This document shows, in pieces, positions 18,745 through 36,667 of a stretch of 64,000 bases of DNA. How positions within the stretch are numbered: the stretch's first letter is position 1; each line of letters starts with the position of its first letter. The stretch lies in the IMG/VR virus record IMGVR_UViG_3300037502_002145, positions 51,872-115,871 of that record; one strand, 5' to 3'. Below the pieces are notes generated by a model that was not told where the DNA came from, made no database searches, and saw only the letters and a program-made list of their open reading frames with translations. This stretch comes from a virus. Position numbers and translations under genes: made by a program.

Positions 18745-19965
18745 ATGAAAACCACAAGAGCAGAACAACATATTATCAAAAAGAACAATCCTTTATGGCA
18801 AGTAGTAGACATCATGTGTTTTAAATCTAAGAACCTATATAACTTTGCCAATTATATTATAAGGCAAGAATTTATCAACAATGGTAACTGGATACATTAC
18901 AATTCACTTTTTGATTTATGTAAAGAAAGTGAACCATATAAAGATTTAGGTAGCAATGTTGGTCAGGCAACATTAAGATTGTTGGATAAAAACTGGAAAT
19001 CATTCTTCAAAGCCATAAAAGATTGGAAACAGTATCCAAGTAAGTATTTAGGTAGACCTAGATTACCAAAGTATAAACCTAAAGATGGTAGATTTATTTT
19101 AAGTATTGATAATAATAAGGTAATGCTGAAGGATGGCTATATATACTTTGCTTGGAAACCATTAAAAGTATTGAATAACCACTTTATTACTAAAATACCA
19201 CAAGATTGTAAAGTATTTCAATGCAGATTTATACCAAGTGGATCAAATTATACAATGGAAATAGTATATGAGATTGAAGTATCTGAACAACCGGAACATT
19301 CAGAAAGAATTATAAGCATTGATTTAGGAGTTGATAACTTTGTAACTATTACAAATAACATTGGACTAAAACCATTTGTTATTAAAGGCGGAGTAATTAA
19401 GTCAGTAAATCAATATTATAATAAAGAAAAAGCAAGAATACAATCCGAATTGAAAAAGGTTAATAAAAAAGATTGGAGTAATAAGTTACAGAAGTTGACT
19501 GATAAACGTAATAACAAAATTAAGTATTTGATGCATGTTTATAGCAAAAATATTATTGATTACTGCTTAAAGAATGGGATTGATACTATTGTATGCGGTT
19601 ACAACAAAGAGTGGAAACAAGAATCTGAAATGACTAAGAAAACTAATCAAAAATTTGTAACCATACCATATGAAATATTTATAAGCATGTTAGATTATAA
19701 ATCATTAGATAGTGGCAAGAAGTTTATTTTGAATGAGGAAGGCTATACGTCTGGAACATCATTTTTAGACAACGAAGAACCAATTAAGACTAACTACAAT
19801 AAAAGTAGAAGAGTTCATAGAGGTTTATTTGTTAGCAACAATGGTATTAAAGTCAATGCTGATGTAAACGGAAGTTACCAGATAATGAAGAAAGTATTCC
19901 CAAACGTCTTTGACAATGGGATAGAGGGTGCAGGTTTACACCCAATGGTATTTAAAATTGCCTAA
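18745..19965 (+). CDS. tnpB: TnpB-family RNA-guided nuclease with rearranged active site (406 aa)
   Basis: ATG after AAAGGAAG. RuvC-I is SIDLGVDNF. At RuvC-II the canonical Glu is missing: the sequence is TIVCGYNKEWKQ. RuvC-III is NADVNGSYQI. The usual CxxC zinc ribbon is replaced by EEGYTSGTSFLD, whose Glu residues could supply the missing acid. This matches a known TnpB branch in which the RuvC-II glutamate has moved. TnpB cuts DNA guided by an RNA made from the end of its own element. No TnpA transposase is nearby, so it depends on help in trans or is domesticated. Confidence 0.85.
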   Translation: MKTTRAEQHIIKKNNPLWQVVDIMCFKSKNLYNFANYIIRQEFINNGNWIHYNSLFDLCKESEPYKDLGSNVGQATLRLLDKNWKSFFKAIKDWKQYPSKYLGRPRLPKYKPKDGRFILSIDNNKVMLKDGYIYFAWKPLKVLNNHFITKIPQDCKVFQCRFIPSGSNYTMEIVYEIEVSEQPEHSERIISIDLGVDNFVTITNNIGLKPFVIKGGVIKSVNQYYNKEKARIQSELKKVNKKDWSNKLQKLTDKRNNKIKYLMHVYSKNIIDYCLKNGIDTIVCGYNKEWKQESEMTKKTNQKFVTIPYEIFISMLDYKSLDSGKKFILNEEGYTSGTSFLDNEEPIKTNYNKSRRVHRGLFVSNNGIKVNADVNGSYQIMKKVFPNVFDNGIEGAGLHPMVFKIA

Positions 19966-31352: not shown

Positions 31353-31600
31353 TATAATTGCGGTATATTCCCATGCCGAAAGGTGAGAACTTAATACATA
31401 ATGAAACGAAATTTAAATGTTACTCACCAAAGCTTGAAATATAGCAGGCTGCTTAATAGCAGACATTTCAGTCAACCTCTAATAATGTAAATTATATAGT
31501 AGGTCGACAATCCTAGTAATTAAAATATTACTTAGATATTTATTGTTAATCTTAAACAGAAAAAATTATCTTAAAATAAGTCAAAAGTAATAGGTCGACA
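31353..31600 (+). ncRNA. Candidate tracrRNA of the Cas12f CRISPR system
   Basis: TATAAT at 31353-31358 with a weak TTGTTC 16 nt upstream (31331-31336) gives a promoter. The segment then has stems 31361-31366/31373-31378 (6 bp), GGTGAG/CTCACC 31382-31387/31423-31428 extended by a bulged AAC/GTT, and TGAAAT/ATTTCA (31435-31440/31465-31470) enclosing CTGCT/AGCAG. At 31542-31557, ATTGTTAATCTTAAAC is complementary to the first 16 nt of array repeat 3 at 15 of 16 positions, i.e. an antirepeat. Position, structure and antirepeat match type V-F tracrRNAs; the 3' end is a guess. Confidence 0.75.
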
Positions 31601-31648
31601 ATCGAGACTGTGAAACACATTATAAATTCTTGATATTTTGAGTATCGG

Positions 31649-31875
31649 GTTTAAGGATAAACAATGTTGTAATGTGAATCATTCCGAATTGGTATAACGT
31701 TAGACGAATACAACGTTTAAGATAAATAATATTGTAATGTGAATGAGTCTGGGGCTGAAAACGCTAGCACAAGTAGTTTAGGTTTAAGATGAACAATATT
31801 GTAATGTGAATCTCTATTCAGTGCTAAGTATACTAGAACTAATCCGTTTAATATAAATAATATCTTAAGTTGAAT
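31649..31875 (+). CRISPR. Four-repeat CRISPR mini-array next to cas12f
   Basis: Repeats lie at 31649-31679 (31 nt), 31715-31744, 31782-31811 and 31846-31875 (30 nt). Each begins GTTTAA and ends in GAAT; the first three end TGTAATGTGAAT, and the last is degenerate, as the final repeat often is. Repeats 1-3 differ at a few central positions. Three unrelated spacers (31680-31714, 31745-31781, 31812-31845; 34-37 nt) separate them. The array ends 46 bp before the nuclease gene, on the same strand. Too small for reliable detection by default array finders. Confidence 0.88.
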
Positions 31876-31921
31876 AAATATAACAATAATATATATAACA
31901 AATAGTAAAAGGAGAATGTAA

Positions 31922-33202
31922 ATGTCAGATAGATTAACCATATGTAGAAAAATAAAACTTTATCCAGTAGGAGATAAAGAAGAAATAAATAGGACATACA
32001 AATTTATAAGAGATGGTCAGTATTATCAATATAAAGGTTTAAATTTATTAATGGGGCAATTAGTAAGTAAGTTCTATGAGTGTGGAATGGATCTAAAAAG
32101 TCAAATATTTAAAGATTGGCAAAATGTTAATTTATGTAATACAAATCAGTTTTTAGATTTAGATTTTGCAAAAGGAGTTGACACTAAATCTTTAATAAAG
32201 CAAAAAGTAAAACAAGATTTTTCAACAGCTATAAAGAATGGATTAATGAAAGGTGAAAGAAATCCACCTACATACAAAAGAGATTTTCCATTATTGACAA
32301 GAGGAAGAGATTTGAAATTTTATCATGAATATGAAGATTATCCAGAATTTTTAAGTAATTTACGTAAGAATAATGATGTTGTATTTATTAAGTGGGTCAA
32401 TGGTATTGTATTTAAAGTGGTGTTAGGCAATCCTAAAAAATCACAAGAGTTAAGAAGTGTGATTCAACAGATATTTGAAGAAAATTACAAAGTTCAAGGA
32501 AGTACGATAGAAGTGAATGATAAGGAAATAATATTAAACTTATCAATATCAATACCAAAGAAAACAATAGAACTTAATGAAGATACATCTATTGGAGTAG
32601 ACTTAGGAATCGCAGTACCGGCTGTGTGTGCCGTTAATAACAATGATTATAAAAAGTGTTTTATAGGCTCTAAAGATGACTTTTTAAGAGTTAGAACACA
32701 ATTGCAAAATCAAAGGAAAAGACTTCAAAGATCACTAAAATCAACTTCTGGTGGACATGGAAGAAGTAAAAAATTATCTTCGTTGGATAATTTAAAAGAT
32801 AGAGAATCAAATTTTGTTCAAACTTACAATCATTATGTTAGTAAGCAAGTAGTGGATTTTGCAATTAAAAATAAAGCTAAATATATTAACATGGAAGATT
32901 TGAGTGGTTTTGATTCAAGTGAGTTTATATTGAGGAATTGGAGCTATTATCAATTACAACAATATATAACATATAAAGCAGATAAATATGGAATAGAAGT
33001 TAGATACATTAATCCATATCATACATCTCAAATATGCTCTTGCTGTGGACACTGGGAAGAAGGACAGAGAATTAATCAGTCAACATTTGTTTGTAAGTCT
33101 TGTGGTTATTCTGTTAATGCAGATTTTAATGCTGCAAGAAATATAGCAAAGTCAGATAAATATATTTCTAAGAAAGGAAGTGGTTCAGTTGCAAAAGAAT
33201 AA
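31922..33202 (+). CDS. cas12f: Cas12f1-like miniature RNA-guided DNA nuclease (426 aa)
   Basis: ATG 31922 after AAAAGGAG. The C-terminal RuvC domain has D227 (GVDLGIA), E325 (YINMEDL) and D401 (NADFNAARN), with a zinc site CSCC (372-375) and CKSC (391-394). Residues 276-305 (GGHGRSKKL...) and PPTYKRDFPL (115-124) match the pattern I know from Cas12f1 proteins such as AsCas12f1 (about 420 residues). A mini-array and tracr-like RNA lie directly upstream. Cas12f works as a dimer on one guide RNA. No cas1, cas2 or cas4 gene is near, so new spacers must come by recombination or in trans. Confidence 0.9.
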   Translation: MSDRLTICRKIKLYPVGDKEEINRTYKFIRDGQYYQYKGLNLLMGQLVSKFYECGMDLKSQIFKDWQNVNLCNTNQFLDLDFAKGVDTKSLIKQKVKQDFSTAIKNGLMKGERNPPTYKRDFPLLTRGRDLKFYHEYEDYPEFLSNLRKNNDVVFIKWVNGIVFKVVLGNPKKSQELRSVIQQIFEENYKVQGSTIEVNDKEIILNLSISIPKKTIELNEDTSIGVDLGIAVPAVCAVNNNDYKKCFIGSKDDFLRVRTQLQNQRKRLQRSLKSTSGGHGRSKKLSSLDNLKDRESNFVQTYNHYVSKQVVDFAIKNKAKYINMEDLSGFDSSEFILRNWSYYQLQQYITYKADKYGIEVRYINPYHTSQICSCCGHWEEGQRINQSTFVCKSCGYSVNADFNAARNIAKSDKYISKKGSGSVAKE

Positions 33203-35479: not shown

Positions 35480-36667
35480 ATTTATAAAACAAAGATAATA
35501 CCAGTTAAATGCGATAAAAATGATTATGAATATCTAAAGGGGTTAAATAAATTATCTGCCGAAGTATGGAATTATTGTGTAAAAATTGATAAAGAATATT
35601 ATGAGCTTAATGGTAAACATATGGATATGAAAACTATGCAATTTGCTGTAAAGGGATGCGTTAAACTACATGCAAAAGGAATAAATCATGTATACAGAAA
35701 ATATTTAACGGCTAGGGATGCTATGTTTAGATCAATTAAAGCAAAACATAAAAACAGCAACAAAGTGAAATTGCCATATAAATGTAAGAGATATTTTAAT
35801 ACTGGATGGGATTACCAAAGCATAATTTGTGATTATAATAAAGGGTTGTTAAAATTGTCAAGACCTGTCGGGATAGCTACAGATGGCAAAAGACAAAGAG
35901 CATCGCCTGTAAAGTGTTATACAAAAGAGATACCGCAAAATGTAGTTGAGATAGAGTTAACATATAAAAATAGATTAAACTTAGTCATAAAATATAAAGA
36001 GCCCGATATTACACGGAACATAGCTTCTGCTAATTCAGCCGCTATTGATTTAGGCGAAATACATAGTGTTGCTTCAATAGATAATAACGGCAATGCAATT
36101 ATCATTACAGGCAGAAAAATAAGAAGCATAAAAAGACTGAGAAATAAGGAGCAAGGAAAACTACGCTCCAAGATGTCAAAATGTAAAAAGTATAGTAAAC
36201 AATATAAGAAATACAATCGTGCTTTATATCATATTAAATACGAGAGTGAAAAGCAGATACTTGATTGTGTTCACAAGATAAGCAAATTATATCTTGATTA
36301 CTGTATAGAAAATCAAATATCTACAGTGTATTATGGTGATTTAGATAATTGCACTAGAAATAGTTCTGAAAGAATCGGAAAGTTTGTTGGTCAAAAGCTT
36401 AACGAGTGGAATTATGGTAAATTAACTTCACAATTGCACAACAAACTAGAACAATACGGAATAAGACTGATTAAAATTAATGAAGCATATAGTTCTCAAA
36501 CATGTCCGAATTGCCACAAAAGACACAAACCAAAAGGGAGGAATTACATATGTGAATGTGGTTATAAACAGCACAGAGATTTAGTTGGAGCAATAAATAT
36601 ATTAAATTTTAATAGCACGACAAAAATAAAACTATATGAAACATTTAAGTATCTACGGATAGAGTAA
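35480..36667 (+). CDS. tnpB: TnpB-family RNA-guided nuclease with ATT start (395 aa)
   Basis: The first ATG in frame is at 35612, but homology-like sequence (KTKIIPVKCDKNDYEYL, SAEVWNYCVKI) extends upstream to ATT 35480. That codon lies 7 nt after AAAGGAGGTGAT, an extended Shine-Dalgarno sequence. RuvC residues appear intact: AAIDLGEIHS, VYYGDLDN and QHRDLVGAINIL, with zinc ribbon CPNC...CECG. TnpB cuts DNA guided by RNA from the end of its element. No TnpA is nearby. The downstream RNA is described separately. Confidence 0.85.
   Translation: MYKTKIIPVKCDKNDYEYLKGLNKLSAEVWNYCVKIDKEYYELNGKHMDMKTMQFAVKGCVKLHAKGINHVYRKYLTARDAMFRSIKAKHKNSNKVKLPYKCKRYFNTGWDYQSIICDYNKGLLKLSRPVGIATDGKRQRASPVKCYTKEIPQNVVEIELTYKNRLNLVIKYKEPDITRNIASANSAAIDLGEIHSVASIDNNGNAIIITGRKIRSIKRLRNKEQGKLRSKMSKCKKYSKQYKKYNRALYHIKYESEKQILDCVHKISKLYLDYCIENQISTVYYGDLDNCTRNSSERIGKFVGQKLNEWNYGKLTSQLHNKLEQYGIRLIKINEAYSSQTCPNCHKRHKPKGRNYICECGYKQHRDLVGAINILNFNSTTKIKLYETFKYLRIE

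What the first reader, a model, noticed from the sequence alone, without database searches (positions are those of the whole stretch)
31353..33202. Self-contained type V-F CRISPR unit: Cas12f1-like nuclease, mini-array and tracr-like RNA, without cas1/cas2
The 426-aa protein has all three RuvC acids (D227, E325, D401), a CxxC/CxxC zinc site and the GGHGR and YKRD segments I associate with Cas12f1. Directly upstream on the same strand are four repeats of 30-31 nt with three 34-37-nt spacers, and a structured RNA with an antirepeat. No adaptation genes occur in the window. On a mobile replicon this could target competing plasmids or phages, as reported for other minimal mobile CRISPR systems. 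Its short size and divergence from AsCas12f1 make it a candidate new compact effector.
Basis: partly seen in the sequence, partly recalled or inferred. Interest (0 to 1): 0.93.

Follow-up and report, generated by a model that had tools for sequence, protein, structure and literature searches.

The report
Phage-borne miniature CRISPR-Cas12f unit
A large phage of gut-type (Clostridia-related) bacteria carries a complete miniature DNA-cutting CRISPR system (one small nuclease, its guide-RNA scaffold and three stored target sequences) but no genes for adding new targets; systems of this kind are already known in phages, and this one is a fairly distant relative of nucleases already used for gene editing.

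Summary
Window 31361-33202 (+) holds a tracr-like RNA, four 30-31-nt repeats with three 34-37-nt spacers, and a 426-aa protein with an intact RuvC triad and zinc site. The protein is a Cas12f1: its best solved relatives are CnCas12f1 and RhCas12f1 (51% and 45% identity), and a tree puts it in a mostly phage-borne sister clade of these (97/99), far from the two IS605-type TnpBs of the same phage. Nearly all relatives (38-59% identical) have an adjacent array of about 66-nt period. A covariance model built from relatives only finds the window's RNA exactly where expected (E = 7e-6) and nowhere else in the 116-kb phage. No Cas1, Cas2 or TnpA was found in the record. The host element is a large tailed phage with integrases, distantly like Clostridioides phage phiCDIF1296T. 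No protospacer was found for any spacer, so the proposed targeting of competitors stays inference. Phage-borne V-F systems without adaptation genes are known (huge phages, landfill viruses), so this is a new member of a known kind. The freshest lead lies in the relatives: several have scaffold and repeat contiguous in cis, a natural single-guide layout.

The parts
31361..31432 (+). Conserved 5' module of the tracr-like RNA: stem 1 CGGTAT/ATGCCG, AAA linker, stem 2 GGTGAG/CTCACC
   Evidence: cmsearch with model R1, built from relatives only: 36.5 bits, E 6.9e-6, single hit in the window and none in the rest of the phage; covariation over 11 units; fold z = -3.8 for 31358-31565
31433..31558 (+). 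3' part of the tracr-like RNA: further stems, antirepeat at about 31541-31557 (pairs with the repeat 5' half), and a possible short pairing near 31462 with the repeat 3' half
   Evidence: duplex and sgRNA-style folds
31588..31648 (+). Second copy of TARTAGGTCGACAATC plus a weaker second antirepeat candidate, between tracr RNA and first repeat
   Evidence: direct repeat D5; duplexes of -13.3 to -13.8 kcal/mol with R1-R3; function unknown
31649..31679 (+). CRISPR repeat 1 (31 nt, one extra G)
31680..31714 (+). Spacer 1 (35 nt)
   Evidence: no protospacer
31715..31744 (+). CRISPR repeat 2 (30 nt)
31745..31781 (+). Spacer 2 (37 nt)
   Evidence: one 19-nt match in a GC-rich viral contig, chance level
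31782..31811 (+). CRISPR repeat 3 (30 nt), best partner of the antirepeat
31812..31845 (+). Spacer 3 (34 nt)
   Evidence: no protospacer
31846..31875 (+). CRISPR repeat 4, degenerate terminal repeat
31922..33202 (+). Cas12f1 nuclease, 426 aa, intact RuvC D227/E325/D401 and zinc site
   Evidence: PDB sequence hits, PADLOC Cas12u3 411 bits and Cas12f 407 bits, tree, fold search

Best explanation
A compact type V-F1 (V-U3-like) CRISPR-Cas interference unit carried as cargo by a large temperate-type phage. The tracr-like RNA and the four-repeat array are transcribed from the same strand (inferred). Repeat and antirepeat pair, giving guide RNAs with the spacer 3' of the repeat (inferred from anatomy). 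The Cas12f1, probably as a dimer as in its solved relatives, uses them to cut double-stranded DNA next to a 5' C-rich PAM (PAM inferred from the sister clade only). The unit has no adaptation genes, so spacers come from host machinery in trans or by recombination between phages (inferred from spacer turnover in relatives). Its likely role is to let the phage or its lysogen exclude competing phages, plasmids or satellites; this last step has no direct support.
For: Protein closest to CnCas12f1 (366 bits) and RhCas12f1 (323 bits), ISDra2 TnpB only 28 bits; PADLOC Cas12u3/Cas12f above 400 bits; tree with 97/99 support; CnCas12f1 is the top Foldseek hit, and the RhCas12f domain aligns at TMt 0.84-0.86. 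Catalytic triad and zinc cysteines intact. Array with chance excluded. Arrays of about 66-nt period beside the gene in nearly all relatives. The RNA family has compensatory changes at 8 of 12 pairs, 99% of cells paired against 26-47% in slid controls, and was recovered in the window by an independent model. No Cas1/Cas2/TnpA in the record. The phage has portal, tail, polymerase, helicase and integrase genes. Related phages L005-L007 have almost identical Cas12f and almost wholly different spacers, and no Cas1 was found in the six relatives' phage records searched.
Against: No expression data. No protospacer for any window spacer or for the relatives' spacers tested, so neither activity nor target class is shown. 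The repeats have diverged and antirepeat pairing with R1 and R4 is no better than many shuffles: the array may be ageing. The nearest relative is only 59% identical, so the PAM may differ from the sister clade's.
Confidence: 0.88

Rival explanations
1. An IS200/IS605-type TnpB with its omega RNA, and chance repeats nearby.
For: NCBIfam calls it guided_TnpB (196 bits, cut-off 100); database records call relatives 'transposase'; the phage has two real TnpB-family genes.
Against: ISDra2 TnpB scores only 28 bits in the PDB search against 366 for CnCas12f1; tree; no TnpA in the record; array not chance and conserved beside the gene in relatives; scaffold RNA conserved, with repeat and spacer after it.
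Confidence: 0.03
2. A decaying CRISPR remnant: the protein is intact but the array no longer makes useful guides.
For: Repeats 81-90% identical, R4 decayed, R1 with an insertion, weak pairing for R1/R4; no adaptation genes; no targets found.
Against: Open frame with every conserved residue kept; R2 and R3 pair well; scaffold stems intact; small arrays lacking Cas1 are the norm in phages (PMC7162821).
Confidence: 0.2
3. A regulatory system: guides silence or edit host or own genes rather than attack rivals.
For: Some phage Cas14 spacers hit host genes (PMC7162821); solitary guide units sit by relatives' genes.
Against: Triad intact, so it should cut; the 20-nt seeds of the window spacers have no match with 4 or fewer mismatches elsewhere in the window; spacer 3 not in the seven relatives' genomes or phage records tested; spacers turn over among related phages.
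Confidence: 0.1

Closest known systems
CnCas12f1 (PDB 8hr5) and the C. novyi PICI Cas14a locus (PMC8473940)
   Same: Same tree neighbourhood; C. novyi repeat gttttagtttaactatgtgaaatgtaaat resembles the window repeat GTTTAAGATAAATAATATTGTAATGTGAAT; carried on a mobile element with an adjacent array
   Different: 497 aa against 426; 51% identity over 343 aligned positions; the Cas14a locus is on a phage-inducible island, not on a large phage (that CnCas12f1 is that locus's protein is assumed, not tested)
RhCas12f1 (PDB 9nzp; PMC10090079)
   Same: Similar length (415 aa), 45% identity, CRISPR array and tracrRNA; C-rich PAM (NCCD) shown there
   Different: Sister clade; bacterial genome; PAM of the window protein untested
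Type V-F / Cas14 systems of huge phages (PMC7162821) and V-F1/V-U3 effectors of landfill viruses (PMC12607003)
   Same: Phage-borne single-effector units with short arrays, typically without Cas1/Cas2
   Different: Not compared sequence by sequence here; the phage in hand is about 116 kb, not a huge phage
Alicyclobacillus phage MMB025 Cas12f (PV686781, L011)
   Same: Cultured phage with Cas12f directly beside an annotated CRISPR
   Different: 30% identity; groups with AsCas12f1/OsCas12f1
Bacillus arachidis plasmid NZ_CP127374 Cas12f (L010)
   Same: 45% identity, homologous repeat (GTTTTAAATGAACTATATAGAATGTGAA) and antirepeat
   Different: Two array-plus-tracr units flank the gene; groups with Cn/Rh

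Membership tests
Type V-F1 CRISPR-Cas12f | Effector groups with Cas12f1, apart from TnpB | tested here: met
   PDB and PADLOC scores; tree
Type V-F1 CRISPR-Cas12f | RuvC D-E-D triad and zinc cysteines | tested here: met
   D227, E325, D401, C372/375/391/394 aligned with references
Type V-F1 CRISPR-Cas12f | Adjacent CRISPR array | tested here: met
   four repeats, three spacers; arrays in nearly all relatives
Type V-F1 CRISPR-Cas12f | tracrRNA with antirepeat | tested here: met
   scaffold family; antirepeat pairs with R2/R3 beyond shuffles, R1/R4 not clearly
Type V-F1 CRISPR-Cas12f | RNA-guided, PAM-dependent DNA cleavage | not testable with these tools
   needs biochemistry
IS200/IS605 TnpB | TnpA partner in the element | tested here: not met
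   no Y1_Tnp match in the 115,871-bp record; many TnpBs are solitary, so weak alone
IS200/IS605 TnpB | Closest relatives are TnpBs and guide comes from the transposon end | tested here: not met
   tree and PDB scores; guide region is an array; transposon ends were not searched for specifically
Phage-borne CRISPR without adaptation genes | Replicon is a phage, no Cas1/Cas2 | tested here: met
   structural genes, Cas1 and Cas2 absent; the record may be incomplete
Inter-element competition CRISPR | Spacers match phages or plasmids | tested here: inconclusive
   no protospacers found

The most novel reading that the evidence does not exclude
The window's unit belongs to a phage-borne Cas12f1 lineage that uses natural single-guide RNAs: a short scaffold (72-116 nt to the end of the repeat) fused in cis to a repeat and guide, alone or at the head of a mini-array. 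That would be an arrangement between the TnpB omega RNA and the dual tracr/crRNA of other Cas12f systems, and some phages would keep solitary, fixed guides with a separate job. In the window itself antirepeat and first repeat are 90 nt apart, so it would show only a split or looser form.
Probability: 0.3. Interest if true: 0.65.

Novelty: new member of a known kind. Interest (0 to 1): 0.42.

Why it matters
It adds an intact, small (426 aa) Cas12f1 with a well-supported guide-RNA scaffold, in a clade next to the C-rich-PAM nucleases used for editing but with no characterised member that we found. Its relatives have shorter, cis-fused scaffolds that would be convenient as tools and bear on how the TnpB omega RNA became split into tracrRNA and crRNA. 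Closely related phages with different spacers and no Cas1 pose a testable question: how do phage arrays renew themselves without adaptation genes?

Tried and rejected
TnpB reading: rejected on scores, tree and lack of TnpA. Rfam: no family at gathering score; the weak CRISPR-DR42 hit lies on the opposite strand with E 0.55. Spacer targets: blastn of phages and plasmids gave nothing significant; exact 18-nt seeds in IMG/VR gave none for S1 and S3 and one 19-nt match for S2 whose flank (CTTT) is not C-rich, chance level. Relatives' spacers found only themselves. Self-targeting: nothing beyond controls within the window; spacer 1 alone was searched in the whole record. Exact repeat search in IMG/VR: none. 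Promoter and terminator scans: no more than shuffles. MAFFT alignment of the full scaffold module misplaced stem 2 because loops vary; I used loop-excised, hand-registered units instead (A3), and then an ordinary alignment without the window (A4) as an independent check.

Full report
What is there. The window lies at 51872-115871 of a 115,871-bp virus record. ORF 31922-33202 encodes 426 aa. Upstream on the same strand lie four repeats (31649-31679, 31715-31744, 31782-31811, 31846-31875) with spacers of 35, 37 and 34 nt. Two successive steps of about 66 nt match at 53 of 60 positions; the best of 300 dinucleotide shuffles reached 39. The fourth repeat is decayed, which fits a leader-distal end next to the gene and a leader on the tracr side.

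The protein. Solved relatives in order are CnCas12f1 8hr5 (366 bits), RhCas12f1 9nzp (323), Al3Cas12f (231) and AsCas12f1 (172); ISDra2 TnpB scores 28. PADLOC gives Cas12u3 411 and Cas12f 407 bits. NCBIfam has no fitting Cas12f1 model among the hits and names it guided_TnpB, which explains why databases call such proteins transposase. In a tree of 20 rows (PDB rows are the fragments printed by HMMER) the window protein sits at the base of a nine-row clade of phage, prophage and genome-borne proteins (97/99), sister to Cn/Rh/B. arachidis (84/91), with AsCas12f1 and OsCas12f1 separate and the two TnpB-family proteins of the same phage as distant outgroup on long branches. The triad D227/E325/D401 and four cysteines are kept. 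An AlphaFold2 model (mean pLDDT 75, pTM 0.52, nine-sequence alignment) has CnCas12f1 as best Foldseek match; whole-chain TM is only 0.46 with a large rmsd, probably because domains are placed differently, but the RhCas12f domain fits at TMt 0.84-0.86 and rmsd about 3.

The guide RNA. Relatives found in IMG/VR, GTDB and plasmids have a common scaffold: a 6-bp stem with a 6-nt loop, a three-base linker, and a second 6-bp stem closed by a loop of variable length. On 11 hand-registered, loop-excised units 99% of cells pair, 8 of 12 pairs have changes on both sides, and sliding the partner drops pairing to 26-47%. Because that alignment was chosen by eye, an independent test was made: a covariance model from eight units of L003, L008, L015 and L021, without the window, found window 31361-31432 at E 7e-6 as the only window hit with E below 1 and none in the rest of the phage. 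It also found loci it was not built from: L030 (E 7.5e-8), L032 (1.4e-6), L004 (2e-4) and L029 (4e-4), with L005-L007 weaker (E-values are rough). In the window further stems follow, then an antirepeat at 31541-31557 that pairs with R2 (-17.5 kcal/mol, 1/300 shuffles as good) and R3 (-19.4, 2/300), less convincingly with R1 and R4. An sgRNA-style fold gives the two stems, extra stems and a repeat:antirepeat helix.

The company it keeps. Arrays of 61-69-nt period lie beside the gene in L003 to L008, L010, L015, L021, L030 and L032 to L034; the depositors annotated a CRISPR beside the more distant L011. In L029 only a single scaffold-repeat unit was seen. The position varies: upstream in the window, L003 and L021, downstream in L004-L008 and L015, both sides in L010. 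Phages L005, L006 and L007 have nearly identical Cas12f and, apart from one spacer shared with two differences between L005 and L006, different spacers. None of the six phage records searched has Cas1 (L005's record was not searched). The Roseburia genome with the L003/L009 prophage has Cas1 on another contig, so supply in trans is possible there. The systems are rare: 3 of 397 and 4 of 392 sampled genomes of two bacterial groups at E below 1e-60, query genomes included.

The carrier. The record has portal, tail, FtsK-like, PolIII alpha, DnaB-like, primase and anaerobic NrdD genes and several integrases or recombinases, and one protein with the MrpR core-binding domain; MrpR is, from my own knowledge, the SPbeta repressor. 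Its polymerase is nearest to human-gut phages (45%), then to Clostridioides phages such as phiCDIF1296T (31%). A large temperate phage of Clostridia is likely; host and temperate life are inferred. Cas1, Cas2 and TnpA are absent from the record, with the caveat that it may be incomplete.

How it works. Shown: the anatomy, conserved catalytic residues, and a conserved, covarying scaffold. Inferred from studied family members: dimeric, guide-directed cleavage of double-stranded DNA; [quoted passage not shown] The PAM of this clade is unknown. What it attacks is unknown: all searches for protospacers failed. Defence against rivals is the standing interpretation for such units (PMC7162821, PMC11656645), not a result here.

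What is known already. Type V-F effectors in phages, mostly without Cas1/Cas2, were reported in 2020 (PMC7162821). V-F is enriched on plasmids (PMC9071438). C. novyi islands carry Cas14a with a similar repeat (PMC8473940). Landfill viruses encode many type V effectors, V-F1/V-U3 among them (PMC12607003). The finding is therefore a new member of a known kind.

A lead beyond the window. In L003, L008, L015, L021, L029 and L030 the scaffold runs straight into a repeat that folds back on the antirepeat, then a guide. Some units stand alone, as short as 72 nt (L003 6301-6372); the guide of that one matches nothing else in its phage or host with up to 3 mismatches. This looks like a natural single guide. 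I did not find it described for Cas12f in the two literature searches made, which cover open-access papers only. It needs RNA data.

Noticed in passing
L003 6301-6372, L008 6733-6850, L015 2837-2948, L021 2768-2858 and 4392-4502, L029 2530-2645, L030 2847-2951: Scaffold, antirepeat and repeat are contiguous and fold as one RNA followed by a guide: natural single-guide layout, some as solitary units without array.
   Followed up: partly
window 18745-19965 and 35621-36667: Two further TnpB-family ORFs in the same phage have Gly at the aligned RuvC-II Glu column and no TnpA in the record; they may be rearranged-site or nuclease-dead (TldR-like) proteins.
   Followed up: no
L005 2375-2680, L006 6540-6708, L007 6540-6850: Nearly identical phage Cas12f genes with almost wholly different spacers and no Cas1 in the L006 and L007 phage records (L005's not searched): spacer turnover without own adaptation genes.
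   Followed up: partly
window 31497-31512 and 31588-31603: A 16-nt element TARTAGGTCGACAATC is duplicated on either side of the antirepeat; the second copy precedes another weak antirepeat candidate.
   Followed up: partly
L010 3960-4320 and 6250-6600: Bacillus arachidis plasmid Cas12f gene is flanked by two inverted array-plus-tracr units with near-identical tracr sequences.
   Followed up: no
L004 1156-1232, L007 4794-4870: A tRNA-like sequence (TAA anticodon region) directly upstream of the phage Cas12f gene.
   Followed up: no
L004 2840-3180: Further short repeats (CACTAAAG..TTATAAT and inverse) between the scaffold RNA and the array, possibly a second degenerate array.
   Followed up: no
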